In this document: in pieces, positions 2,869 to 21,725 of the stretch | Position numbering within the stretch: position 1 is the first letter of the stretch | Layout: each line of letters opens with the position of its first letter | Virus record (IMG/VR): IMGVR_UViG_3300042549_005655 | Coordinates: 1 to 24,768 of that record | Strand: one strand, 5' to 3' | Length of the DNA stretch: 24,768 nucleotides | Source: a virus | The notes under the pieces: model-generated | What the model was told of the DNA's origin: nothing | The model's database searches: none | What the model saw: the letters and a program-made list of their open reading frames with translations, nothing else | Translations under genes and position numbers: made by a program

Positions 2869-2895
2869 CAAAGTTAAAAAAAAAGCCTTAACAAA
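2869..2895 (-). promoter_or_regulatory. Promoter-like element after the capsid terminator
   Basis: On the minus strand TAACTTTG (2876-2869) matches the Bacteroidetes -7 consensus TAnnTTTG. A TTTG at 2895-2892, in the loop of the adjoining hairpin, is 15 nt upstream, slightly shorter than the usual 17-23. If used, it would restart transcription for the connector, tail-completion and fibre genes with a leader of only about 10 nt before the ATG at 2853. Moderate support; the -33 spacing is imperfect. Confidence 0.4.
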
Positions 2896-2913
2896 TTAAT
2901 GCTAAGGCTTTTT
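2880..2913 (-). terminator. Intrinsic terminator after major capsid gene
   Basis: A perfect 11-bp stem (arms 2880-2890 and 2903-2913, core AAGCCTTA/TAAGGCTT) encloses a 12-nt loop at 2891-2902. On the minus strand it is followed by a run of nine Ts. It lies 19 nt after the capsid stop codon and fits factor-independent termination, or partial termination that would leave capsid mRNA more abundant than downstream connector mRNA. Its loop is nearly the same as that of the hairpin at 21405-21432. Confidence 0.8.
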
Positions 2914-2931: not shown

Positions 2932-4014
2932 CTAAGATGCTGAATTTGCTTTGTAGCTTAATAAGTGATTAACACCTTGTAAAGTGTCACCATATCCGAA
3001 TGCTTCAGTTGGTTGAATCCAAACACCAGCATTTACTGAAAGTTTAAGATTGTATTTCAAACCACAAGATAAGAACTCCATTTTTGCATCCCATAACAAA
3101 CCATGTACAATAGGGTCTTCAATTGTAAATGTTTGTACAGTTCCTAAATCAACTGCAAATTCTTTAACAAATCTAGGATTTGTCCATACTTGGAATGCAC
3201 CTTTACCAGCTACGATAATATCGTTTGCACCTTTATTATCCACGTATTTATCAACCTCAAATTGATAACCTGAATTAATAGAGCTTTCAATACCTGAATT
3301 TTGTAATCCTGTGTAATTTGATAATCTTGCGAATTTCTCAAAGTTACCTTTACCAATAATATAAGGATTACCAGCCATTTGAATATCAGAACAATCTGAC
3401 ATAATTTCTTGAATACCTGAATAAACAGGAGCACCACCAACAATACCAGTAGCACCAGCATGAATCACATCAATATCCTTTTGAGTAGTTGAACCACCAT
3501 AAAAAGAACCAAAATTAGTGTAAATTCTATCAACAACTTCTTTATTTAATGCCGTTCTAATTGCATCAGTTTTTCTTAAAAAACGCTCGTAAAACTCACG
3601 CATTTTAATCATTGAGTTTGCAGGTAACCCTAAGCCTTGAATTGCTTGAGATGCTGATTGTTCTAATACTGCTACAGTATCTAAAGTTAATGTAATATCT
3701 ATTTCTTTGTAAATATCTAATACAAAATCTTCTGTGATAAATGAATCTTCTGTTCCTGGTTCACATGAAGGCTCATCGCTAACTTGTGCCATTGTAGCAC
3801 GAGGAATATATTTAATTACACCTTTATAATAATGCCCAGCATCATACAGATTACTTAATTTAGAACCTGCTTTATTTTCTTCAGAAATACCTACTTTTAG
3901 TGTACCTACAGGAGTTTGTAAATACTCAGGATTTTGGGTAGTTGCTACCTCTTTTAATGCAAAAAGAATGTCTCTTGCTCTACCTGTTACATTTAGCGAT
4001 GGAATACCAGCCAT
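2932..4014 (-). CDS. Major capsid protein
   Basis: A 360-aa protein directly after the scaffold gene and before a strong terminator, the usual place for a highly expressed capsid gene. It begins MAGIPSLNVTGRARDILFAL and has alternating helices and strands. A long helical region around 115-165 includes FYERFLRKTDAIRTALNKEV, and the C-terminal half is beta-rich with conserved-looking stretches such as NPRFVKEFAVDLG and WIQPTEAFGYGD. This layout is compatible with an HK97-type shell protein, but I see no diagnostic motif proving the fold. No separate prohead protease gene is visible nearby, so maturation may not involve cleavage, or the protease may be unrecognised. The assignment rests on order, length, terminator and general resemblance to capsid proteins of Bacteroidetes phages. 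Confidence 0.75.
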   Translation of the reverse strand: MAGIPSLNVTGRARDILFALKEVATTQNPEYLQTPVGTLKVGISEENKAGSKLSNLYDAGHYYKGVIKYIPRATMAQVSDEPSCEPGTEDSFITEDFVLDIYKEIDITLTLDTVAVLEQSASQAIQGLGLPANSMIKMREFYERFLRKTDAIRTALNKEVVDRIYTNFGSFYGGSTTQKDIDVIHAGATGIVGGAPVYSGIQEIMSDCSDIQMAGNPYIIGKGNFEKFARLSNYTGLQNSGIESSINSGYQFEVDKYVDNKGANDIIVAGKGAFQVWTNPRFVKEFAVDLGTVQTFTIEDPIVHGLLWDAKMEFLSCGLKYNLKLSVNAGVWIQPTEAFGYGDTLQGVNHLLSYKANSAS

Positions 4015-4892: not shown

Positions 4893-4923
4893 ATTGTATA
4901 TTAAAAAAACATTATTACATTTG
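4893..4923 (+). promoter_or_regulatory. Bacteroidetes-type promoter of the accessory operon
   Basis: TTG at 4893-4895, a 20-nt spacer and TACATTTG at 4916-4923 match the TTG-N17-23-TAnnTTTG consensus of Flavobacterium and relatives. Transcription would start near 4928-4932, about 18 nt before the ATG of the RHH gene. It would drive the whole plus-strand cassette to the terminator at 7137-7162. Confidence 0.6.
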
Positions 4924-4938
4924 TAACATAGTGTAACA
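4915..4938. repeat. Candidate operator: TGTAACA repeats
   Basis: TGTAACA occurs at 4922-4928 and again at 4932-4938, exactly 10 bp apart (one helical turn). TTACA at 4915-4919 forms an inverted repeat with TGTAA at 4922-4926 across the -7 box. Such closely spaced short repeats over a promoter are the usual operators of ribbon-helix-helix proteins, and an RHH-like gene starts 10 bp downstream. Binding is inferred. Confidence 0.45.
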
Positions 4939-4947
4939 CTTTAATAC

Positions 4948-5088
4948 ATGAGTAAGAATAGAATAACTGCACATACAACCCCTTTTGTTAAACAATACTA
5001 TGAAAAATTAGCAAAAGATAGAAGGACTTCAATAAGTCAAGTTGCGGAAGAAGTATTGTATAATGAAGCTAAAAAAAATTCAAAATGA
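4948..5088 (+). CDS. Small ribbon-helix-helix (CopG/Arc-like) regulator
   Basis: A 46-aa protein whose pattern fits an RHH DNA-binding domain: a short strand near ITAHTTPF (residues 6-13), helix 1 FVKQYYEKLAKDRR (13-26), a turn with TSIS, and helix 2 ISQVAEEVLYNEAKK (29-43). RHH proteins act as dimers that insert a two-stranded beta ribbon into the major groove. It is the first gene of the plus-strand cassette, directly behind a promoter with tandem TGTAACA repeats, so autoregulation of the cassette and perhaps repression of the divergent scaffold promoter is a sensible inference. Its stop overlaps the next start as ATGA. Being so short, the family call rests on pattern alone. Confidence 0.6.
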   Translation: MSKNRITAHTTPFVKQYYEKLAKDRRTSISQVAEEVLYNEAKKNSK

Positions 5089-5225
5089 GTGATGAACAAT
5101 ATAATTTAGAATTAATTGCAGAAACTGTAGTTAATGTTGAAAGGAAATATAAACGCTTTTTAATTAGTCTTATATTAACTTCTTTAGTATGTTTTGCAAT
5201 GTTAACAATAATTATAATTAAATAA
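5085..5225 (+). CDS. Small single-pass membrane protein
   Basis: A 46-aa protein with an acidic N-terminus (MSDEQYNLELIAETVVN), a basic anchor (ERKYKR) and one hydrophobic segment at about residues 25-45 (FLISLILTSLVCFAMLTIII) ending in Lys. By the positive-inside rule the N-terminus should be cytoplasmic. It overlaps the previous gene by ATGA and joins the methyltransferase gene through TAATG, so it is embedded in the operon. Function unknown; small phage membrane proteins of this kind often affect entry, lysis timing or superinfection, but nothing in the sequence decides this. Confidence 0.6.
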   Translation: MSDEQYNLELIAETVVNVERKYKRFLISLILTSLVCFAMLTIIIIK

Positions 5226-5722
5226 TGAAAAAACAACCAAGTAAACACATTTGGGATTCTGAAACAGAATGTGCAAAGTTCTTAGCTAACTTTTGCGAAA
5301 TGTCAAATTTATTTAAAATCCTTGAAGTAGGAGTTTGGCAGGGTGCTACATCGGTATATCTTGAAAAAGTTTCAAGTGAATTTGTAGGTATTGATATTGT
5401 TAATGAGCAAATAACAAGCGAATTAATAAAGAGTAAAACCTTAGTAGGAGATTCTATCGAAGTAATGAAAACTTTACAATCAAACTACTTTGATTTGATT
5501 TTCATTGATACTACACACGAATATGAACGTACTAAAATTGAATTTAAAGAGGCTGAAAGGCTTATTAAACAAAACGGTTATATTGCTTTGCATGATTCAA
5601 TTTCGCATCAAGGTGTAAAGAAATGGATTGACGAAATTAAAGGTAATAAAGGACTTGAAATTATAACCTTTGAAACACCAAACGCTAACGGTTTAACTAT
5701 TGTAAAATATTTGTATGAGTAA
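5225..5722 (+). CDS. Class I SAM-dependent methyltransferase (Methyltransf_24-like)
   Basis: A 165-aa protein with a compact Rossmann-type methyltransferase core. Motif I is ILEVGVWQGAT (residues 32-42), the acidic residue after strand 2 is D57 in VGIDIV, VGDS (74-77) is the next cofactor loop, DLIFIDTTHEY (90-100) is the strand-4 region, and GYIALHDS (118-125) follows strand 5. This FIDxxHxY plus LHD pattern is typical of the Methyltransf_24 group, which often modifies sugars or other small molecules, rather than of DNA methyltransferases; no DPPY or NPPY catalytic motif is present. The substrate cannot be told. It starts at TAATG and overlaps the next gene by 8 nt. Together with the window's glycosyltransferase it might act on glycans, but that link is speculative. 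Confidence 0.75.
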   Translation: MKKQPSKHIWDSETECAKFLANFCEMSNLFKILEVGVWQGATSVYLEKVSSEFVGIDIVNEQITSELIKSKTLVGDSIEVMKTLQSNYFDLIFIDTTHEYERTKIEFKEAERLIKQNGYIALHDSISHQGVKKWIDEIKGNKGLEIITFETPNANGLTIVKYLYE

Positions 5723-6128
5723 CGAACTAGAAGATTATTATACCTTTCAAAGAGGTAATACTTATAATATATCATTAAATGATATTAATATAGGTAATTT
5801 TGTTTTTCAAAGATTTGATACTTACCCTAACTGTCATTTTCTAAATAAAGGTAACAATACATTTGTTGAATTTGATAATTTATCTATTAGATTAGATGAA
5901 ATAGATAATTACGAAATAAACCTAATTAAAGAATCTGATTATATTGATAGCAGTAAATTAATTAATGGAACAAAATATTTAATTGGTTCAACTAAAGAAA
6001 ACGCTAAATATTATACTGTAGTTAGTAAATATTCAGAAGGTTATTATGTGTTAAACCATGAAAATAATCAAATTCAAAAATTTATGTATTTATCTTTTGT
6101 AAATTATAAAGTATTTAAAAATGCTTGA
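5715..6128 (+). CDS. Hypothetical protein of the accessory cassette
   Basis: A 137-aa, Asn/Tyr/Ile-rich acidic protein with many beta-strand-like stretches (TYNISLNDINIGNFVFQRF, YYTVVSKYSEGYYVLNH) and no transmembrane segment or motif I recognise. The C-terminal half reads like a small barrel (GTKYLIGSTKENAKYYTVVS). It overlaps the methyltransferase by 8 nt and the superinfection-immunity-like gene by 8 nt, so the three are probably translated together. The very high AT content matches the rest of the cassette. No function is proposed. Confidence 0.6.
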   Translation: MSNELEDYYTFQRGNTYNISLNDINIGNFVFQRFDTYPNCHFLNKGNNTFVEFDNLSIRLDEIDNYEINLIKESDYIDSSKLINGTKYLIGSTKENAKYYTVVSKYSEGYYVLNHENNQIQKFMYLSFVNYKVFKNA

Positions 6129-6291
6129 GTTTATACAGACAGTAATAGTAATACTATTATATTTCTTACCTTCATGTTTAGCACATGATAGTAAAAACTT
6201 TGGTCAAATATTGGCTTTAAACCTTTTATTAGGTTGGACTATTATTGGTTGGATTGTAGCTTTAATTTGGAGTTTAGCACCTAAAAAGTAA
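6121..6291 (+). CDS. Superinfection immunity-type small membrane protein (Imm-like)
   Basis: A 56-aa protein with two hydrophobic segments: about residues 5-20 (IQTVIVILLYFLPSCL) and 30-51 (ILALNLLLGWTIIGWIVALI). Between them is a short polar loop starting AHDSKN, and the end is basic (PKK). The YFLPS-x-x-AH hairpin and the LNLLLGWT-x-IGWIVAL-x-W segment are hallmarks of the family named after T4 Imm, an inner-membrane protein that blocks DNA injection by a second phage. Many members in bacterial genomes have no tested function, so exclusion is likely but not proven. It overlaps the upstream gene by 8 nt and meets the next at TAATG, inside the plus-strand cassette. Confidence 0.75.
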   Translation: MLEFIQTVIVILLYFLPSCLAHDSKNFGQILALNLLLGWTIIGWIVALIWSLAPKK

Positions 6292-6632
6292 TGGTAAATT
6301 TTGAGTATATAAAAAATCATGAAAAAGAAATAAAAGAACTATTTAATAATAGTTCTTTCTTTTATCCTGAAAAAATTGAAGATATTTCATCAAGAATAGA
6401 ACATAATAATGGTATAAGGTTATTTTGCACTAGAAATGTTTATCGTGGCGATATTTCAGTAATTAAAAATATTGTAAAAGTAATGAAGCTATTAAAAGCT
6501 AATCATTTTCAATTTCATGATAATGCTAATAATTTTTGGTTAGACTTTTATTATATTCTATCTGAAAAAGAATTAAACGAAATAAAGAAGTTTAATTTAT
6601 TAAAACAATTAAATGAATTAGAGAATGGATAA
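6291..6632 (+). CDS. Hypothetical protein of the accessory cassette
   Basis: A 113-aa soluble-looking protein, mostly helical and Lys/Asn-rich, with the stretches IKNHEKEIKELFNNSSFFYP and LLKANHFQFHDNANNFWLDF. Several His and aromatic residues sit in the middle, but they form no metal or catalytic motif I can name. It starts at TAATG behind the Imm-like gene and overlaps the next gene by 8 nt. No homologous family recognised. Confidence 0.55.
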   Translation: MVNFEYIKNHEKEIKELFNNSSFFYPEKIEDISSRIEHNNGIRLFCTRNVYRGDISVIKNIVKVMKLLKANHFQFHDNANNFWLDFYYILSEKELNEIKKFNLLKQLNELENG

Positions 6633-6837
6633 AACACTTAAATATATTCAATCATTTTATACAAATGCTGAGTTTATAAATGGCAATGAGTTAAAATTAT
6701 CTGAAAGTTTTGTACTTAAAAAAACTTGCTCTTGTGGTTTCTTAAAGCTTTACAAAGATAATAAACACATTGATAGTGTAAGAACTGGCAACAATACTTT
6801 AATGCTTCAACAAATTAAAAAATATTTAGGCTACTAG
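6625..6837 (+). CDS. Hypothetical small protein of the accessory cassette
   Basis: A 70-aa basic protein with a CSCGF motif (Cys at about 35 and 37) in the middle, a predicted helix at the N-terminus (LKYIQSFYTNAEF) and another at the C-terminus (LMLQQIKKYLGY). Two cysteines alone do not make a zinc site. It overlaps the preceding gene by 8 nt and lies 4 nt before the next. Function unknown. Confidence 0.5.
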   Translation: MDKTLKYIQSFYTNAEFINGNELKLSESFVLKKTCSCGFLKLYKDNKHIDSVRTGNNTLMLQQIKKYLGY

Positions 6838-6841
6838 AATT

Positions 6842-7138
6842 ATGTTAAGTAACTTAGCTTATTACAATAATGGTAAATATAAAACAAAATGTTACCATGG
6901 CAATGAAGGTAGTATATCAAACCTTACTTTATATAAAAAAACTTTTATTGGTTATATAGAAGTAGATTGTAAAGGATTAACTATTTCTAATTATATTAAC
7001 AAAAATAACTTAATAAAAGATATTGATTTTTATAATCAAAATAGTAAGGATGTTGATTATAAAAATAAAATGGTATTAATATATAACTTATTTATTATTA
7101 TGATTGGTATTTTTATTTTCTATAAAATTTTAAATTAG
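6842..7138 (+). CDS. C-terminally anchored hypothetical membrane protein
   Basis: A 98-aa protein with a polar, Asn/Tyr/Lys-rich N-terminal domain and one hydrophobic segment at about 76-96 (MVLIYNLFIIMIGIFIFYKI). The basic DYKNK just before it, and the absence of a signal peptide, suggest a tail-anchored protein with the main domain in the cytoplasm. It is the last gene of the plus-strand operon; its TAG stop (7136-7138) lies in the left arm of the terminator hairpin, and the last few codons overlap the 3' end of the convergent MuF-like gene. It is the third membrane protein of the cassette. Function unknown. Confidence 0.55.
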   Translation: MLSNLAYYNNGKYKTKCYHGNEGSISNLTLYKKTFIGYIEVDCKGLTISNYINKNNLIKDIDFYNQNSKDVDYKNKMVLIYNLFIIMIGIFIFYKILN

Positions 7139-8032
7139 GCTACTAATTAAGTAGCCTTTTTTATCTATTTCGGGAACTACCAACTCATCAACTGGCAATA
7201 TTTGATGCCTACAATTATAACCACCTCTATAAGTGTAAATTGTTTTTTCGTTTGTTTCGGGAATCCTTCCACCGCCTTTGTTTTTCTTAGTTTTACAACT
7301 TTCCCAAAGTGATGGAGTTTTACCCCAATATGCAACCTCTGATTTATGAAAATATCTACCAACACGTTCTAAACAGAAACATCTTGAGGTAATTTGCTTA
7401 CCGCCTTGATATAAAAACCATTCAAAATCTAAGTCATCAGTAACCGCTTTTATATAGTTACCTTGATATTGATATAAAGCATCATGAGTAATTTGAGATA
7501 CATACCTTTCCAGTCCTCCTAACTCTTTAGGTTGTCCTAAAATTTCAATCTTAAGTGATTGTTGCAACTCTTTATAAGACAAACCATTTACAACACTTTG
7601 ATTTAAAATGTTTTTAATTGGCGTTTCTAAAGCTTGTTTTAAACCAGCTTGTGTAAGGCTTTCAACTGTTGTTTCGATATTTAAAACACGTATTGCATCA
7701 TAAACTTTCTTTACTTCAAAACTTGTATTGATAGCTGAAAAATAAGTATTCATTAATGTTTGTACCTCATTAAATCCTTTTACATACTCATTTAATTTAT
7801 TGATGTAATCAGTATTTAAAACAATACTATCAATGTTTGAGTTTATTTTACTTACTTGTTTTAAGTTGTTTACGCTTGTTTTAATTGAATCTCCTGTACG
7901 GTCTAATTTAGTAATCTCATTTACTACATTATCGTAAATTTCTTTTTGAATACTATTAAGTGAGCCTTCAAACTTATTTGAAAACTCACTTATAACAGTA
8001 TCAATCTTTTCAATTATCTCCTCAGGTGTCAT
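7130..8032 (-). CDS. MuF-like minor head protein
   Basis: A 300-aa protein immediately after the portal, starting at a TAATG junction with it. The N-terminal two thirds are helical. The C-terminal third carries the typical MuF-family layout: a helix ITHDALYQYQGNYIKAV (181-197), then SRCFCLERVGRYFH (216-229), a glycine-rich stretch and finally YRGGYNCRHQILPV (268-281). C218, C220, H229, C246, C274 and H276 could bind a metal. MuF proteins are minor capsid components encoded next to the portal and are implicated in head assembly and early DNA delivery. There is no C-terminal toxin extension as in some family members. Its last codons overlap the convergent accessory operon and its terminator. 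Confidence 0.75.
   Translation of the reverse strand: MTPEEIIEKIDTVISEFSNKFEGSLNSIQKEIYDNVVNEITKLDRTGDSIKTSVNNLKQVSKINSNIDSIVLNTDYINKLNEYVKGFNEVQTLMNTYFSAINTSFEVKKVYDAIRVLNIETTVESLTQAGLKQALETPIKNILNQSVVNGLSYKELQQSLKIEILGQPKELGGLERYVSQITHDALYQYQGNYIKAVTDDLDFEWFLYQGGKQITSRCFCLERVGRYFHKSEVAYWGKTPSLWESCKTKKNKGGGRIPETNEKTIYTYRGGYNCRHQILPVDELVVPEIDKKGYLISSLI
7137..7162 (+). terminator. Terminator of the accessory operon at a convergent junction
   Basis: AGGCTACT (7137-7144) and AGTAGCCT (7150-7157) form a perfect 8-bp stem with a 5-nt loop, followed by Ts to 7162. It overlaps the stop of the plus-strand gene and lies within the last codons of the minus-strand MuF-like gene. It is a good plus-strand terminator; on the minus strand the following tract is weaker. 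Confidence 0.75.
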
Positions 8033-9765
8033 TATACTTGTGGCGTAGGTATTAACGTAGGTTTGTTAGCTTTCAAATACTCTTCTGCGTATTTATCTAC
8101 TATCTCAAATCTTTTCAGTAATGGTAACTCTTGAAAGTTTTTAATCTCCTCAAATGCTTTTGTAACAAACTGATTAATTAAATTATGAGTAATAATAGTT
8201 TTTTGGCTAACTCCTGTTGATTGCATTGTAAGTACATCATCTGAAGTTGCCCCACGTAAAGGGTCTAACTGAATAATATTTGTATGAAATGCTATTTGTC
8301 TAGGGTTACCTGCAAACTTTTTAGAAACATACGCCAATTCCATTTCTTCTAAAATAGAACTAGAAATACCGTTTTGTTTTGCTAATGCAATTTGTTGTTC
8401 TAATTCAGAAACTCCAACAATATCATAGTTTGTTGGTGTAGTAATGAATGGCAATTGATTATTCAACTCCTCACTACCTAAACCTAATAACACACCATAT
8501 CTTTGGTCATTTATAAACTTAATTATATTTTTAAATACAACTTGGCAAATATAATCAGCAACTTTAAATATAAATAAATTTGTTTGTTCCCAATCGTAAG
8601 CCTTAGATGTTCCGCTAGTATTCATCGGCATTTCTGACAAATGGCTCATGTTTACCGCATCATAACCACTATTAATAAGTTGTTTAATATCTTCGCTTAA
8701 AAACTTAATAGGGTCAAGATTTCTATCAATATATTTTTTTGGCGCCCAACTTGGTAGTGCATCTTCTCCACCTTTAGTAGGTCGAACCACCAAATCAGCA
8801 AATGTACTACTTTTTGCTATTCCTGTACCATCGCAATGACTACAAGTATGTCTAGTTATAGAGCTTCCTATTTTTTTCTCTATTTGCCCTTGACCGTTAC
8901 AATGCATACAAATTTGTTGCCCATAAATTGCACTTTCAAGGTATGTATGCATCTTAATACCTGCGTTTTTATCGGTATTTTCTACTAATGCTTGGTCAAA
9001 GTCTGGAACAATACCAGCAATAAAAGATTCATAAAGAAAGTTATCTTTTAAGTATTTTATTACTCCACCATTATAAATAAATGGTATGTAACCTGAGTTA
9101 TGAACCCAAATAATATCGGTATTATACTGTCCTTTTTCATTTTGAACTAACTTGTATAAATTAACTTTATCCCAAATAGTCCAAACTTTCTTTCCTTCTT
9201 TTAGAATCAATAAATCATAATCAATATACTGACAATCTTCAATACAATAATAGTAAGGCAAAGGCTCTACAAATTCACTTTCTTGTATTTCATAAATTTC
9301 TCCTTCAATAGCTTCGTGAATATGCTTTGGCATTGTAACTTGAACTCCATTTGCATCTTGCAAAAAGTTTTCAAAGTTGTAATTAAAGAACCAATTTTGA
9401 ATAGATTTGTATTTACCAAATCCTTTGGTTATATAATCGTAAATACCTTGTCCATCAGCTACTTTAGGACTTTCATTACCTTTTATAATTACAAAGTCAT
9501 TTGCTCGGCTAATTTTTGATAAAACAGAAGTTATTTTACTTGTACCTTTTTTAGTAATAGGTCTGTAAATCTTTGCTTTATATTCTTTAATCCAATCAGG
9601 CTCAGAAGGTTGATAAGATGTTAGTAATTCTGCAACATCCTCATATTTACCGCTAAAATGCTTTTTAAGTGCTTTGTAAAGTCTTATTTGCTCATCCCTT
9701 ACGTATGCATCATGATAGCGAGTAATATACTTATCAATGAAATCTTTAGAACCTATTTGTAACAT
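8032..9765 (-). CDS. Portal protein with a DnaJ-like zinc motif
   Basis: A 577-aa protein with the length and position of a portal (dodecameric DNA gate at the capsid vertex), directly before the MuF-like gene and upstream of scaffold and capsid. The N-terminal part has stretches common in such portals (RDEQIRLYKALKKHF, YKAKIYRPITKKGTSKI). The C-terminal part has long helices around EMPMNTSGTSKAYDWEQTN and EELNNQLPF. Residues 286-315 hold two CxxCxGxG motifs, CMHCNGQG (286-293) and CSHCDGTG (308-315), the signature of DnaJ cysteine-rich zinc repeats. I infer an inserted zinc-binding loop or knuckle. The rest of DnaJ (J domain, HPD) is absent. It is followed 1 nt-overlapping by MuF and preceded by the glycosyltransferase gene. 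Confidence 0.75.
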   Translation of the reverse strand: MLQIGSKDFIDKYITRYHDAYVRDEQIRLYKALKKHFSGKYEDVAELLTSYQPSEPDWIKEYKAKIYRPITKKGTSKITSVLSKISRANDFVIIKGNESPKVADGQGIYDYITKGFGKYKSIQNWFFNYNFENFLQDANGVQVTMPKHIHEAIEGEIYEIQESEFVEPLPYYYCIEDCQYIDYDLLILKEGKKVWTIWDKVNLYKLVQNEKGQYNTDIIWVHNSGYIPFIYNGGVIKYLKDNFLYESFIAGIVPDFDQALVENTDKNAGIKMHTYLESAIYGQQICMHCNGQGQIEKKIGSSITRHTCSHCDGTGIAKSSTFADLVVRPTKGGEDALPSWAPKKYIDRNLDPIKFLSEDIKQLINSGYDAVNMSHLSEMPMNTSGTSKAYDWEQTNLFIFKVADYICQVVFKNIIKFINDQRYGVLLGLGSEELNNQLPFITTPTNYDIVGVSELEQQIALAKQNGISSSILEEMELAYVSKKFAGNPRQIAFHTNIIQLDPLRGATSDDVLTMQSTGVSQKTIITHNLINQFVTKAFEEIKNFQELPLLKRFEIVDKYAEEYLKANKPTLIPTPQV

Positions 9766-9769
9766 AAAA

Positions 9770-10672
9770 TTAATGTTTTAGCCTTTCCTTTAAGAAATTA
9801 AATTTGTCAATCCAAACCCAACGTGAATTTGTCATAAATTTACCACTTCTTTGATAATATACCAACACAAGTGTATTATAGAAATTTTTTAATTCAGTTC
9901 CTAATCTATTACCAGCCATTGATACAAAGTAATAAGTTTCATAGAGTTTCTTTCTATCAACCAAATTAACTTGATTTGCACCTGCTGGATACCAAAATAT
10001 CGGCTGATATGGTTTTTCTTCTTTAACATTGTTTAACGCTAAAGATATGCTAAAAGCAAATTCATCGCCCATACCGTTCGCCCATTCTCTAGTACCAAAA
10101 TCCTTTTTTCTAAATCTTTCCTCCGCAGTTTCAAATATTGCCTTAGCTTTATTTGTTTTCTTAAAGTATAAGAAACTACTTTGAATATGATAAAAAATCG
10201 CATCTTTTTTAAACTTGAAATATTTATTTAAATCGTTAATACATTCCCCTTCTGCATTCCAAAATACACTACGTTCGCTAGTAATTGGGAATACATCATT
10301 TTCACTATAACAAGTAAATCCAAAGTCTTTATGCTTGAATTTCTCAAATAATGAATTAATATCTTGTTTTGGTAACCAAATAGAATCAACATCTAAAAAG
10401 ATTGTTTCTTCAAATGGACTAAACTCGTAAACCCTTGTCTTAGTGTAAACGTGTTGCTCTTTACCTTCAATTGTGTAAAAACTTGGTTCAAGTTCCGTAA
10501 AGCTATCAAAATAACTTTTTTGTAATTCTGTTAAACCTGTTAAATTACCCTTTGTATGTACTAAGTGTATTAAAATAGCCTTATCGCATTGTTTCAACGA
10601 TAAGGCTAAATTAAATGCCATCTTAGGGTAATTAGTATGTCCTGTTGCTACTAATATTATCCCTCTTTTCAT
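9770..10672 (-). CDS. GT-A type glycosyltransferase with DXD motif
   Basis: A 300-aa protein beginning with a Rossmann-like strand (KRGIILVATGHTNYPKMAFN) and carrying ETIFLDVDSIWLP, in which D94-V-D96 is the DXD motif that binds the metal and the nucleotide sugar in GT-A enzymes. GDEFAFSISLAL around residue 204 and IFWYPAG further on resemble acceptor or base regions of GT8-like enzymes. It probably transfers a sugar from a nucleotide sugar in the cytoplasm. It lies between a probable tail tube gene and the portal, all in the same direction with 4-5 nt gaps, so it is expressed with virion genes. Glycosylation of a virion protein is one reading; modification of host surface glycans is another. 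Acceptor unknown. Confidence 0.7.
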   Translation of the reverse strand: MKRGIILVATGHTNYPKMAFNLALSLKQCDKAILIHLVHTKGNLTGLTELQKSYFDSFTELEPSFYTIEGKEQHVYTKTRVYEFSPFEETIFLDVDSIWLPKQDINSLFEKFKHKDFGFTCYSENDVFPITSERSVFWNAEGECINDLNKYFKFKKDAIFYHIQSSFLYFKKTNKAKAIFETAEERFRKKDFGTREWANGMGDEFAFSISLALNNVKEEKPYQPIFWYPAGANQVNLVDRKKLYETYYFVSMAGNRLGTELKNFYNTLVLVYYQRSGKFMTNSRWVWIDKFNFLKERLKH

Positions 10673-11214: not shown

Positions 11215-11940
11215 TTAACAGTTTGAATTTTGATAATTAAATATTGTTTTATAAATCTTTGATTTACATTGCATTAGACTATAAAGTTTTACAAACGTAG
11301 GAACAAAGTTTTCACAAATATAAGGAACTCCATCAATATTGCAATAATCGTGAATACTAATAAAATTTAGTCTTTCAAGTTCGTATTTTGGTAGTGATGC
11401 AGTTGATATAGTTTCAACATCTTGTAATGATGCTGAAAGCCTTATTTTAGTATTATTCGAATCTATGTAAACAGTTTCTTCAACTGGATATTCATTTTCA
11501 TCAAAGGTAAATTGAGTATAAGCGTAACCTTTCCAACCAGCATACGAAACACCATCTATCATTTCATTATTTGAGTACTCAAACTCATGTATATTTTGCC
11601 AATAATCAGCAATTACAAAATGCTCAGAAACTCCTAAAATAATAGGCTCTAATGGGTCTGTAGTGGTTTGAGTATTTTGATAAATCATTGCATACAATTG
11701 CCTATTATAGTAAGCATCTTGTAAGTTTAAATCGATTTTAACTGTATATCTACCTGTACTGAAAGAAGTCATTACCCACTCAGTTAAACAAGTTCCATCG
11801 CAATCAAACCACCCTAGAATAGGAGTTGATACATCGGTTTGAATTTGCATAGCAAACCAACCCCAAGATGGAAACTTTTGTTCGTAAGGTGGTCTTGTTT
11901 CCCCTCTTTGTCCTTGATATTTATACAGAGTTTCAACCAT
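11215..11940 (-). CDS. Putative tail-tip structural protein
   Basis: A 241-aa protein rich in aromatic residues and predicted strands. It has a WGWFAMQIQTD / ILGWFDCDGTCL stretch (residues about 26-52) that reads like a beta-sandwich, and several cysteines (CDGTC, CNIDGVPYIC, C-terminal NSNC). It begins at TAATG with the upstream gene and lies 12 nt before the tail tube candidate. No family recognised with confidence; a distal tail or baseplate component is inferred from being in the run of genes downstream of the tape measure. Confidence 0.5.
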   Translation of the reverse strand: MVETLYKYQGQRGETRPPYEQKFPSWGWFAMQIQTDVSTPILGWFDCDGTCLTEWVMTSFSTGRYTVKIDLNLQDAYYNRQLYAMIYQNTQTTTDPLEPIILGVSEHFVIADYWQNIHEFEYSNNEMIDGVSYAGWKGYAYTQFTFDENEYPVEETVYIDSNNTKIRLSASLQDVETISTASLPKYELERLNFISIHDYCNIDGVPYICENFVPTFVKLYSLMQCKSKIYKTIFNYQNSNC

Positions 11941-18384: not shown

Positions 18385-18456
18385 CTATTTTTTTGATTCG
18401 TTTTTCTTAAGTTCTTCTAAAACTAATAAATATTCTAATATTGTCAATCGTTTAAC
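18385..18456 (-). other. Candidate -1 programmed frameshift site and extension of the tail chaperone
   Basis: In the chaperone reading frame the last codons read TTA AAC GAT TGA. The heptamer GTTAAAC (18456-18450) has the right phase for simultaneous slippage of TTA to GTT and AAC to AAA. A -1 shift there avoids the TGA at 18446-18444 and continues for 21 codons (RLTILEYLLVLEELKKNESK and K) to TAG at 18387-18385, only 4 nt before the tape measure ATG. The product would be 237 aa instead of 217. AAGGAA at 18470-18465, 8 nt upstream of the heptamer, could serve as a stimulatory internal Shine-Dalgarno as in dnaX. No clear downstream stem-loop was found. Confidence 0.55.
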
Positions 18457-19097
18457 AAAATCAATTCCTTCAACTCTGAAATCTGCAATTCTAAAGAATT
18501 CAACAAATCTTTGTTCTTGTTGTTTGGCGTGATTGACTGCATAATTCTTTCTAACTGTTCTATTTTCAGTTGCGATGTTGCCTTCGTTAAGTTCGTAAAG
18601 ATGTCCGAATCTACCTTTGACAAATTTAACGAGGGTAGTAATTCTTTTAATGGTACGCTCAAAAAAAAAGACTCCACTTTAAGTTTTTTCCACTCCTTTA
18701 TTTTCTTTTCGTTGTAAGTTTCATCATAAGTTAAATGACTTTCATTATCATCAAACCACATAATAGAACCTAAACGAAGTATAGTATCATAATCTGAAAC
18801 AGTACTTAATCTATACTTTAAATCTTGTGTAAGTTGTGCAACTTCTGTTAATTTACCCCTATTTGTAGCATCTAAAATAGCCTCAACGTGTGCAGTCATA
18901 AACTTACTATCAACCTTCATTTCCATTTCATTGTAGTACTGAATTGCCATTAAGGCACGTTCACAAGGAATATTTATGAAATCGTTAATGTGATAGTATT
19001 GTTTACCACCAAGTGTAAAAGCTTTTTCAATTACATACTTTGGACTTTCTTTTTGCCAAACTGGTTTGCTAAATAGTGACTTAATCTTGTTTATCAT
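18444..19097 (-). CDS. Tail assembly chaperone (G-like; possible G-T fusion by frameshift)
   Basis: A 217-aa mostly helical protein just upstream of the tape measure gene. It begins MINKIKSLFSKPVWQKESPK and has a middle region with CERALMAIQYYNEMEMKVDS, DYDTILRLGSIMWFDDNESH and a C-terminal leucine-rich helix (DLLNSLELQISELKELILLN). In siphophages this position is held by assembly chaperones that coat the tape measure, expressed in a short and a frameshifted long form. The short form ends at 18444 and a -1 frame stays open to 18385 (separate entry). Sequence similarity to known chaperones is not evident to me, so the assignment rests on position, helical character and the frameshift arrangement. 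It overlaps the upstream membrane-protein gene by 17 nt. Confidence 0.65.
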   Translation of the reverse strand: MINKIKSLFSKPVWQKESPKYVIEKAFTLGGKQYYHINDFINIPCERALMAIQYYNEMEMKVDSKFMTAHVEAILDATNRGKLTEVAQLTQDLKYRLSTVSDYDTILRLGSIMWFDDNESHLTYDETYNEKKIKEWKKLKVESFFLSVPLKELLPSLNLSKVDSDIFTNLTKATSQLKIEQLERIMQSITPNNKNKDLLNSLELQISELKELILLND

Positions 19098-19696: not shown

Positions 19697-20923
19697 CTAA
19701 ATTAATCTACAAAATTGCGAATGATAAGAGTTTAAATAATACCTAAAATTATCTAAGTTGTGAGTTAATTCCATGTTTGATTTATCAATGTTACCGAAAG
19801 CATCAACTTGAACGTACATTAAATCTTTGATTGTACCTTTGCATTTAGGGTTTATTTTTACGTTTTTATGTTTTTCTAAAATAGAATTGACTAAAACTCT
19901 ATTGTTTTTGTGGCTTGGGTTACTACGTGGTGCATCAATATTATTGAAAGAAATATCCAATTCCTTTTGAATAATATCGTACATACAAACTAAACCTTTT
20001 GTACTCTTTTCTCTTGCCCAACCACTGGCATCGCCTGTTACTTTAATTGGGTTTCCTCTATCGCAATACTTTGCTTTAATTTGTCCTAACAACTCATAAA
20101 TATCACTTGTTGATAATCTAAATTCGTCTATTTGATAAATAAAGTCCGCAGTATGTTGAAACACACTACAAGTCATTGGGTCAACATTAAAGTCAAATGA
20201 TAAATAAATAGTACCACCTTCTAAATATTCAGCTTCATTTGAAATGTGTTTTGTATCGTTGAAAGCATATGCAAAAGCATTACCTGTAAAGTTAATATAT
20301 TCAGCTTCAAACTCTTGTTGATAAGTTAAACTGTCTATTTGTGATTTAATTTCTTCTATCTCAGATTCAAGTATAAAAGGATTTGATGTTGTTGGCATAT
20401 GAAAACTTTGCCAATCCTCAAACTTTTTACTATTTTCATCTAAAGTGTGAAAGTAGTTATTAAATCCATCTGGAGTACTCATAAAAAAAGCATCTCCAGC
20501 ATAATCTGCTAAAGTTGGTCTTATTGCTTTGTTCCATGATGTTTCCATATCCTTTACAAAAGCAACCTCATCTATTATTGCTCTATGGAACTTTTTACCA
20601 CGTCCAGCACGTTTTTTTTCTAAAGAAAATATTTGAACTGAGCCACCTGTTTTAAAAGTGATACGGTATTTAGATTCATTTTTATAAGTAATAATTGATT
20701 CTAATCTATCTTTTATCTCATCCCAAAACTCATCGCAAAAATTATAAGAAGGTACAAAATAACCAACCTTACCACCTTGTAAAATGGTATCAATTGCTAG
20801 TCTTACAGATAATATTGTTTTACCCCAACGTCTTCCATTTCTGAGTACGTTAAATCTTTTTTTATTATCATAAACTATCTTTTGTCCTGTGTGAAGTTTT
20901 GGTCTTGATACAGATAATTCCAT
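19697..20923 (-). CDS. terL: Terminase large subunit
   Basis: A 408-aa packaging motor with both expected domains. ATPase: Walker A GRRWGKT (residues 30-36), Walker B RAIIDEV with D118 and E119, and FFMSTPDG (146-153) as the coupling motif. Nuclease (RNase H-like fold): LSFDFNVDP with D244, VTGDASG with D298, and HNLDNFRYY with D391 as candidate metal-binding acids. The length is typical. It docks on the portal, drives DNA into the prohead with ATP and cuts the concatemer. It starts at TAATG after the small subunit. The sequence alone does not tell cos from pac packaging. Confidence 0.93.
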   Translation of the reverse strand: MELSVSRPKLHTGQKIVYDNKKRFNVLRNGRRWGKTILSVRLAIDTILQGGKVGYFVPSYNFCDEFWDEIKDRLESIITYKNESKYRITFKTGGSVQIFSLEKKRAGRGKKFHRAIIDEVAFVKDMETSWNKAIRPTLADYAGDAFFMSTPDGFNNYFHTLDENSKKFEDWQSFHMPTTSNPFILESEIEEIKSQIDSLTYQQEFEAEYINFTGNAFAYAFNDTKHISNEAEYLEGGTIYLSFDFNVDPMTCSVFQHTADFIYQIDEFRLSTSDIYELLGQIKAKYCDRGNPIKVTGDASGWAREKSTKGLVCMYDIIQKELDISFNNIDAPRSNPSHKNNRVLVNSILEKHKNVKINPKCKGTIKDLMYVQVDAFGNIDKSNMELTHNLDNFRYYLNSYHSQFCRLI

Positions 20924-21372
20924 TAGTCCTCAACTACTCTAATAGTAATTTCTTTAGCAGTATCCTCCTCTTGTTTTTTGTCTCCGTATTCTTTAGGTGC
21001 TAATCTACCCATTAACCATTGGCGAGTTTGAACACGTAATTTAGAGCGCTCAACAAATTCTCTATCCATTTTTACCTGACCTAAGTCGTTGACCATTTCA
21101 TCACCGCTTGAATCGTCTGCAATATCAATAATTTGTTGCTTTAAAAATTCTGCTTGTAACTCTTTAGCACGTGCGTAATTGTGGGAAAAATATTCATGTT
21201 CGTGTTTCCAATTAAAAACAGTCCAAGGGTCTAAATTAAACTCTTCTGAAATTTTATGTATTCCATCTTTTGAAGTTGCAATTCTATAACAAATTTTATC
21301 TGCAAGTTCATCTGAATACTTTGTTGGTCTTCCTCTTTTCTCGGTATTATCCGACTTAATTTCGCTATTCAT
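20923..21372 (-). CDS. terS: Terminase small subunit
   Basis: A 149-aa protein with the classical small-terminase layout. The basic N-terminus GRPTKYSDELADKICYRIA leads into a helix-turn-helix (about 25-57, ISEEFNLDPWTVFNWKHEH), then a helical oligomerisation region (ARAKELQAEFLKQQIIDIAD) and a conserved RSKLRVQTRQWLMGRLAPKE (109-128), a segment common to this family. It recognises the packaging site on phage DNA and recruits the large subunit, whose gene follows at TAATG. It is the first gene of the late packaging/tail block, 18 nt after a promoter-like box. The start ATG at 21372 fits the short leader. Confidence 0.88.
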   Translation of the reverse strand: MNSEIKSDNTEKRGRPTKYSDELADKICYRIATSKDGIHKISEEFNLDPWTVFNWKHEHEYFSHNYARAKELQAEFLKQQIIDIADDSSGDEMVNDLGQVKMDREFVERSKLRVQTRQWLMGRLAPKEYGDKKQEEDTAKEITIRVVED

Positions 21373-21389
21373 AGCCTAGTTGTTTGGTT

Positions 21390-21421
21390 CAAAATTAAAT
21401 AAAAAAAGCATAACAAACAAA
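21390..21421 (-). promoter_or_regulatory. Promoter of the terminase/late operon overlapping the terminator
   Basis: On the minus strand TTTG (21421-21418), a 20-nt spacer and TAATTTTG (21397-21390) match TTTG-N17-23-TAnnTTTG. The -33 element lies in the loop and the spacer covers the stem and U-tract of the hairpin at 21405-21432. Transcription would start about 5 nt after the box, giving a leader near 12 nt to the terS ATG at 21372. Confidence 0.55.
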
Positions 21422-21432
21422 TGCTATGCTTT
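21405..21432 (-). terminator. Intrinsic terminator upstream of terminase
   Basis: Arms 21405-21412 (AAAGCATA) and 21425-21432 (TATGCTTT) pair over 8 bp around a 12-nt loop. On the minus strand the stem is followed by seven Ts and more A/T. It would end transcripts coming from the replication module before the late operon. The loop (ACAAACAAATGC on +) is almost the same as that of the hairpin at 2880-2913. Confidence 0.7.
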
Positions 21433-21470
21433 AATTCACACTATTATAAGGGTTAGTGAGCGTTTCCCTA

Positions 21471-21484
21471 TTACACAAATGTAA
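21471..21484. repeat. TTACA-CAAA-TGTAA palindrome, candidate regulatory site
   Basis: TTACA (21471-21475) and TGTAA (21480-21484) form an inverted repeat with a 4-nt spacer. On the minus strand the site contains TACATTTG, a -7-like box, but no -33 TTG at a proper distance. The half-sites are the same as at 4915-4926 in the accessory control region. It may be an operator or an orphan promoter; it also covers the end of the split small gene. Confidence 0.3.
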
Positions 21485-21725
21485 TACTTTCTTTTAGAAT
21501 ATTCATATTGTGAATTGAATTAGTTGGATAATTTAATATTTCACCACGCCTCCATTTGTTGTACTTCATAAGTATATTATAATTATACTCGCAAATAGGT
21601 TTAACTACGATAGCTATGTAGTGTATAGCTTCGCCAATTTATTCAGGTGTATAGCTATTTTTTACATTTTGCAAAATATGTACAACGTGTGCATTACATA
21701 TTATTTTTGCTTGTTCTAGGTTCAT
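21471..21725 (-). pseudogene. Small gene split by an in-frame TAA (84-codon frame)
   Basis: From ATG at 21725, which overlaps the previous stop as ATGA, the frame reads 28 codons (MNLEQAKIICNAHVVHILQ, then NVKNSYTPE), meets TAA at 21641-21639, and in the same frame continues for 55 sense codons (IGEAIHYIAIVVKPICEYN, then YNILMKYNKWRRGEILNYP and so on) to TAA at 21473-21471. Both parts look like coherent protein and one C-to-T change (CAA to TAA) would explain the stop. The second part could still be made from ATG at 21569 (32 aa). Alternatives are a natural short ORF followed by chance open sequence, a sequencing error, or stop readthrough. No family recognised. The rest of the 500-bp stretch 21373-21872 holds the elements listed separately and one further small gene. 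Confidence 0.45.

What the first reader, a model, noticed from the sequence alone, without database searches (positions are those of the whole stretch)
2869..2913. Hairpin-promoter element with a conserved loop, copy 1 (after capsid gene)
The hairpin loop ACAAATTAATGC matches ACAAACAAATGC at 21413-21424 in 10 of 12 positions, while the stem sequences differ but still pair. Both copies run through a U-tract directly into TAAnTTTGAA on the minus strand. A covarying stem with a fixed loop suggests selection on the loop itself, either as a -33 element or for binding a protein or RNA, i.e. a terminator-restart insulator between transcription units.
Basis: partly seen in the sequence, partly recalled or inferred. 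Interest (0 to 1): 0.6.

Follow-up and report, generated by a model that had tools for sequence, protein, structure and literature searches.

The report
Phage terminator hairpin abutting a promoter
This is an ordinary kind of transcription stop signal at the end of a probable phage capsid gene, running straight into a start signal for the next gene; its hairpin loop, however, turns out to be a recurring, direction-specific loop sequence found in the terminators of many unrelated phages and some bacteria.

Summary
Both minus-strand hairpins fold far better than shuffles (z -5.6 and -4.9), carry U-tracts and run into TAACTTTG/TAATTTTG, 15-17 nt before an ATG. The "12-nt loop" pairs three bases further in (A-U, C-G, G.U), so the true loops are 6 nt: UUAAUU and UUUGUU.

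Best reading: two intrinsic terminators, copy 1 18 nt after the stop of the probable capsid gene, each overlapping a Bacteroidota sigma-A -7 box, so transcription can stop and restart within about 10 nt.

The loop similarity is not explained by promoter function. The core UAGCA-UUWRNU-UGUUA recurs in dozens of contigs, 26 protein-unlinked groups in all, with compensating outer stems; most copies lack a TAnnTTTG box. In an unbiased survey of 225 viral terminators UUAAUU is the third commonest loop after UUCG and GAAA, and UUNRNU hexaloops exceed every one of 5000 shuffles. The reverse-complement class is almost absent, so the preference acts at the RNA level.

At the orthologous site in the nearest usable relative the terminator persists, but neither loop nor promoter does. 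A general link between terminators and TAnnTTTG was not found. I score it a new variant of a known kind.

The parts
2880..2913 (-). Intrinsic terminator hairpin, copy 1: 14-bp stem, loop UUAAUU, inner core UAGCA/UGUUA
   Evidence: fold z -5.6; terminator scan; begins 18 nt after the stop of the 360-aa gene
2871..2884 (-). U-tract of copy 1 (part of the 3' stem arm plus the tail)
   Evidence: sequence
2869..2876 (-). TAACTTTG, sigma-A type -7 box; start site predicted near 2864, leader about 11 nt
   Evidence: sequence; box position -12 to -5 from PMC9723704
1852..2853 (-). Gene downstream of copy 1; start set to ATG 2853 by the conserved MDC[LF].DYIGL start in the relative
   Evidence: alignment A1
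2932..4014 (-). Probable major capsid gene (360 aa) upstream of copy 1
   Evidence: synteny with portal, head morphogenesis and scaffold-like genes in G039/L162; not confirmed by family or structure searches
21405..21432 (-). Intrinsic terminator hairpin, copy 2: 11-bp stem, loop UUUGUU, same inner core
   Evidence: fold z -4.9; identical in the same-species contig L003
21390..21397 (-). TAATTTTG, sigma-A type -7 box of copy 2; start predicted near 21385, leader about 13 nt; TTTG at spacings 16 and 20 upstream
   Evidence: sequence
20923..21372 (-). Terminase small subunit gene, downstream of copy 2
   Evidence: phrog_1482, E 4.9e-30

Best explanation
Each copy is a Rho-independent (intrinsic) terminator whose U-tract runs into the -7 box of a Bacteroidota sigma-A promoter. 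Transcripts of the capsid operon (copy 1) and of the region before the terminase genes (copy 2) are released at the U-tract, and host RNA polymerase can start again about 10 nt further on, making a short leader for the next gene. This would set capsid mRNA apart in amount from the genes behind it. The loop is similar in both copies because it belongs to a preferred class of terminator loops, UUNRNU (UUAAUU most often), which phages, and rarely bacteria, use much as they use UUCG and GAAA loops: probably a compact fold that helps the hairpin form quickly behind RNA polymerase. Shown here: hairpins, U-tracts, positions, -7 boxes, recurrence, covariation of outer stems, orientation bias. Inferred: actual termination, actual initiation, and the reason the loop is preferred.
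For: Folding z-scores -5.6 and -4.9. Copy 1 lies 18 nt after a stop codon. Of 52 distinct hairpins with the core, all lie outside long ORFs and many sit 15-40 nt after a stop. The post-capsid gap of relatives L162/G039 and L171/G018 also holds a strong terminator, with other loops; L181 has a weaker terminator-like hairpin there. The same core follows an HK97-type capsid gene by 18 nt in L312, and lies downstream of major head genes in L332 and in the T4-type L314. Unbiased survey of 225 viral terminators: UUAAUU is the third commonest loop; 6 of 51 hexaloops against 0.9 expected, P 0.0006 for any hexamer; UUNRNU 14 against 5.0, maximum 12 in 5000 shuffles; reverse-complement class 1. Outer stem pairs change on both sides in 58 cells against 13 +/- 3 in shuffles while the core stays fixed. 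UUAAUU occurs in 12 of 26 protein-unlinked groups. -7 boxes match TAnnTTTG (PMC9723704, PMC7366714) with an ATG 15-17 nt on.
Against: No RNA data. At the orthologous site in G039 the -7 box is absent, so the promoter is not conserved. Terminators are not more frequent before TAnnTTTG than before the reversed motif (7/128 vs 4/75), so one or both boxes could be coincidental in AT-rich DNA. The inner core was fixed by the search pattern, so its invariance, the G.U pair included, is untested; the innermost three outer pairs were pre-filtered. The full core is rare: 0 of 296 Bacteroidota genomes, 0 of 42 unselected viral records. The nearest relatives of the window (L003, L004) do not cover copy 1.
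Confidence: 0.68

Rival explanations
1. The loop is conserved because it carries the -33 box (TTTG) of the overlapping promoter.
For: Both loops contain TTTG on the 3' side; copy 2 has a TTTG at spacing 20. Other contigs pair the same loop with TAnnTTTG at spacing 15-17: the L229/L332 group, L260, L271. TTG at spacing 20 is slightly enriched in front of candidate promoters (0.078 vs 0.013).
Against: Most contigs with the same loop have no TAnnTTTG, and several belong to phages not known to infect Bacteroidota. Spacing 15 in copy 1 is short. No -33 motif could be identified in Flavobacterium johnsoniae, as cited in PMC7366714.
Confidence: 0.12
2. The loop is the binding site of an RNA-binding protein or small RNA (for example a boxB-like antitermination signal), so the terminator is regulated.
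For: Fixed core with covarying outer stem and orientation bias. Phage phi21 boxB uses a pyrimidine-flanked UAAC hexaloop, CUAACC (PMC12550061), close in form to UUAACU and UUAAUU.
Against: The hairpin itself carries the U-tract, unlike boxB, which lies upstream of its terminators (general knowledge). It recurs across many phage and bacterial lineages with no shared partner gene found. No Rfam family matched at gathering threshold.
Confidence: 0.1
3. Both are plain terminators; the -7 boxes after them are chance matches in AT-rich DNA and the two copies are alike only through duplication or shared base composition.
For: 68 TAnnTTTG sites lie in the 24.8-kb window; no enrichment of terminator plus -7 box across Bacteroidota phages; the promoter is absent in the relative.
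Against: Both boxes lie 15-17 nt before the start codon at the beginnings of two gene groups; both read TAAnTTTGAA; an independent contig group (L229/L332) has the same terminator + TAACTTTG arrangement.
Confidence: 0.25

Closest known systems
Intrinsic (Rho-independent) terminator behind a major capsid gene, e.g. after gene 13 of phage SPP1 (PMC6316719)
   Same: Hairpin plus U-tract right after a capsid gene (gene 13 ends at 8777, terminator 8775-8815). Another SPP1 terminator (11,255-11,304) has the loop TTAATT.
   Different: In the window the U-tract runs into a Bacteroidota-type -7 box; the SPP1 stems and sequences are unrelated.
UUCG and GNRA tetraloops of terminators
   Same: A short loop sequence recurs on unrelated stems; UUCG and GAAA were the two commoner loops in the same survey.
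   Different: Here a hexaloop, UUNRNU; no structure or stability measurement is known to me. U-UNRN-U may be a U-turn as in UMAC loops (PMC12550061), but that is inference.
Bacteroidota sigma-A promoter (TAnnTTTG, -33 TTTG)
   Same: Exact -7 consensus 15-17 nt before the start codon.
   Different: Overlaps a terminator; -33 box poorly placed in copy 1.
Recycling termination and reinitiation at the nearest promoter (PMC6978380, PMC11347151)
   Same: The anatomy, terminator next to promoter, is what that mechanism would favour.
   Different: Not tested here; described for E. coli RNA polymerase with much larger distances allowed.

Membership tests
Intrinsic terminator | Stable GC-containing hairpin followed by a U-tract | tested here: met
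Intrinsic terminator | Lies at the 3' end of a gene or operon | tested here: met
   copy 1: 18 nt after a stop codon. Copy 2 lies at the far end of a 350-nt non-coding gap, so there it is only indirect.
Intrinsic terminator | RNA 3' ends and factor-independent termination | not testable with these tools
   needs Term-seq or in vitro transcription
Bacteroidota sigma-A promoter | -7 box TAnnTTTG | tested here: met
   TAACTTTG and TAATTTTG
Bacteroidota sigma-A promoter | -33 TTTG about 19-21 nt upstream of the -7 box | tested here: inconclusive
   copy 2 yes (spacing 20), copy 1 no (spacing 15 only)
Bacteroidota sigma-A promoter | Conserved in relatives | tested here: not met
   orthologous gap of L162/G039 has no TAnnTTTG; copy 2 has no informative relative
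UUNRNU terminator hexaloop class (defined here) | Loop over-represented and oriented among unselected terminators | tested here: met
boxB/nut antitermination hairpin | Hairpin upstream of, and separate from, the terminator, with a cognate N-type protein | tested here: not met
   the hairpin carries its own U-tract; no N-like gene was identified, but it was not searched for specifically
Integron attC site | R''/R' boxes plus L boxes and extrahelical bases, in a longer site | tested here: not met
   only GTTAGGC-like letters in some copies; outer stems vary freely and the sites are under 40 nt
Any Rfam 15 family | Match at gathering score | tested here: not met
   0 matches in the window; best sub-threshold hits only

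The most novel reading that the evidence does not exclude
UUNRNU is a third general terminator loop class beside UUCG and GNRA, folding as U.U-closed UNRN U-turns and raising termination efficiency. A frequent version with a UAGCA/UGUUA core spreads among phages of several host phyla, and in Bacteroidota phages the same letters double as part of a promoter for immediate restart.
Probability: 0.3. Interest if true: 0.6.

Novelty: new variant of a known kind. Interest (0 to 1): 0.4.

Why it matters
If the loop class is real it gives a simple, testable rule for recognising phage terminators in AT-rich genomes, where GC-based predictors are weak. It would add a hexaloop to the short list of loops that evolution repeatedly picks for terminators. 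It also warns against reading a fixed terminator loop as a promoter or protein site. The stop-and-restart arrangement behind a probable capsid gene bears on how Bacteroidota phages set capsid dose.

Tried and rejected
Chance similarity of two hairpins: unlikely, but not the whole story. The -33 box as the reason for conservation: disfavoured. Terminator-promoter overlap as an enriched device in Bacteroidota phages: not found (7/128 vs 4/75). The G039 copy at L168:879 was first taken as another terminator-promoter; it lies between convergent genes and its TAGTTTTG is inside a gene end. Integron attC: rejected. Rfam: nothing at gathering level. Capsid by AlphaFold2: uninformative. Capsid relatives by protein search in the phage and viral collections: none at first; found only through portal, terminase and the downstream gene. 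A small RNA from the 350-nt gap ending at copy 2: the fold gives little support (z -2.4 including the terminator, -1.3 for the whole gap). SPP1 records were not in the collection.

Full report
What is there. The window is a complete 24,768-base virus record of IMG/VR, AT-rich, with a tailed-phage structural gene set mostly on the minus strand: terminase small and large subunits, tape measure, portal. The host phylum is inferred as Bacteroidota from the TAnnTTTG promoters and from the company it keeps; no host link was found. The two elements lie in two of the three gaps of more than 50 nt between co-directional minus-strand genes: 2872-2931 between the probable capsid gene and the next gene, and 21373-21721 before the terminase small subunit gene.

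Anatomy. Copy 1 (minus strand, 2913-2880) is AAAAAGCCTTAGCA-TTAATT-TGTTAAGGCTTTTT followed by T's and TAACTTTGAA; copy 2 (21432-21405) is AAAGCATAGCA-TTTGTT-TGTTATGCTTT followed by TTTTATTTAATTTTGAA. Both fold much better than shuffles (z -5.6 and -4.9). The -7 boxes end 15 and 17 nt before ATG 2853 and ATG 21372; ATG 2853 is the likely start because the relative's protein begins at the same conserved residues. With the box at -12 to -5 (PMC9723704), starts are expected near 2864 and 21385, about 10 nt beyond the end of the terminated RNA.

Orthologous sites. In the more distant relative G039 (portal 38%, downstream gene 31-32% identical) the gap after the capsid homologue holds a strong terminator, AACAAAGAGCCTG...CAGGCTCTTTGTT plus T's, with a different loop and no TAnnTTTG. 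L171/G018 has a terminator with a UUCG loop there and L181 a GC-rich hairpin, while L179 and L180 have none. So the terminator position behind the capsid gene is often kept; the loop and the promoter are not. G039 does have a terminator followed by TATATTTG and an ATG elsewhere, before the homologue of gene 18444-19097.

Loop recurrence. A scan of all IMG/VR for TAGCATN{2,4}TTGTTAN{1,5}GCTTTTT returned 70 stretches; of 52 distinct contexts 38 are hairpins with stems of at least 9 pairs. Restricting to hexaloops gave 52 distinct hairpins; the loops are TTAATT 25, TTTATT 8, TTAAGT 4, TTTAGT 2, TTTGTT 2 and single others. By shared proteins they fall into 26 groups (7 viral, 19 bacterial), 12 of which have TTAATT (binomial P about 3e-14 if this letter combination had a 2% chance). 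None lies inside a long ORF and many begin 15-40 nt after a stop codon. Some follow capsid genes: L312 by 18 nt (PF05065), with L332 and the T4-type L314 downstream of major head genes. In the L310/L314 group the hairpin runs into a GATAAATA sequence, like a T4-type late promoter: the same stop-and-restart plan with a different promoter type. Among named phages, Chryseobacterium MA9V-2 and Pseudoalteromonas PH357 have AGCATTAATTTGTT; variants are in Vibrio K476 (AGCCTTAATTGGTT), Curvibacter P26059B behind its capsid gene, and Leuconostoc LN03 behind its major tail gene.

Controls. The core letters were fixed by my pattern, so only two things are informative: which four free loop bases are used, and how outer pairs behave. 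On 32 distinct hairpins the outer pairs change on both sides in 58 cells against 13 +/- 3 in shuffles; the three innermost outer pairs had been pre-filtered for pairing, so part of this is by construction. The fully unbiased test is the survey of 225 terminators in 2.75 Mb of viral DNA not chosen for the motif: UUCG 11, GAAA 11, UUAAUU 6; within 51 hexaloops UUAAUU has 6 against 0.9 expected (P 0.0006 for any hexamer) and UUNRNU 14 against 5.0, more than in any of 5000 shuffles, while the reverse-complement class has 1. Several of the UUAAUU cases come from the same few Bacteroidota phages (Cellulophaga phi19:1, Polaribacter P12002L), so the effective number is smaller than 6. The class UUNRNU was named after seeing the loops of the first part of this sample, so its P value is optimistic. 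The full core itself is rare: 0 of 296 Bacteroidota genomes and 0 of 42 unselected viral records.

Promoter side. Across Bacteroidota phages, TAnnTTTG upstream of candidate genes is preceded by a terminator in 7 of 128 cases, and the reversed motif in 4 of 75: no association. Individual good cases exist: crAss001 25019, FCL-2 735, G038 twice. TTG at spacing 20 is slightly enriched. The loop's TTTG is at spacing 15 in copy 1 and 16 in copy 2, and copy 2 has a second TTTG at 20. I therefore rate the -33 role possible for copy 2, weak for copy 1, and not the cause of loop conservation.

Mechanism. Termination at the U-tract is very likely from anatomy alone; initiation at the -7 boxes is likely but unproven. 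An RNA polymerase released there would find a promoter within a few bases, which fits recycling termination (PMC6978380, PMC11347151), though that work did not test such overlaps. The loop class U-UNRN-U resembles the pyrimidine-flanked UAAC hexaloop of phi21 boxB, which folds like a GNRA loop (PMC12550061); a fast-forming compact loop would explain why unrelated terminators converge on it. That step is inference.

Novelty. Terminators behind capsid genes, and terminators next to promoters, are known (SPP1, PMC6316719). I found no report of a UUAAUU or UUNRNU terminator loop preference in the papers searched; SPP1 Table 2 does list one terminator with loop TTAATT, without comment in the passages read. 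Papers outside the open library were not searched.

Noticed in passing
window 4916-7157: A plus-strand cassette (methyltransferase PF13578 plus small ORFs) sits between the scaffold-like gene and the head morphogenesis gene, with its own TTG-N19-TACATTTG promoter-like site at 4916 and a terminator at 7137-7157; in relative L162 these two flanking genes are adjacent, so it looks like an inserted moron.
   Followed up: partly
window 8032-9765 (-), residues 286-315: The portal protein carries a DnaJ-type CxxCxGxG...CxxCxGxG zinc-finger-like stretch whose cysteines and glycines are invariant in L161 and L162 (A2); unusual for a portal.
   Followed up: no
window 21433-21721: About 290 nt of non-coding DNA upstream of copy 2, with a TACATTTG at 21483 (-); it could encode a short RNA ending at copy 2 or hold a packaging site. 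Folding gives only weak support.
   Followed up: partly
L310, L314, L318, L322, L324, L362, L366: T4-type marine contigs: the same hairpin core is followed within about 10 nt by a GATAAATA late-promoter-like sequence and a start codon.
   Followed up: partly
L388, L403, L406, L439: Cytophagales-type genomes (and one MAG labelled Proteobacteria) carry a near-identical terminator AAGCACTTAGCATT[A/T]ATTTGTTAGGTGCTTTT; L413, L442 and L450 share another, AAGAAGCGATAGCATTAATTTGTTATCGC, which with a one-base variant occurs twice within L413 (one copy behind a trigger factor gene).
   Followed up: no
window 9770-10672 (-): A 300-aa protein between portal and tail genes, conserved in L162 and L177 at the same place (34-43% identity), function not assigned here.
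   Followed up: no
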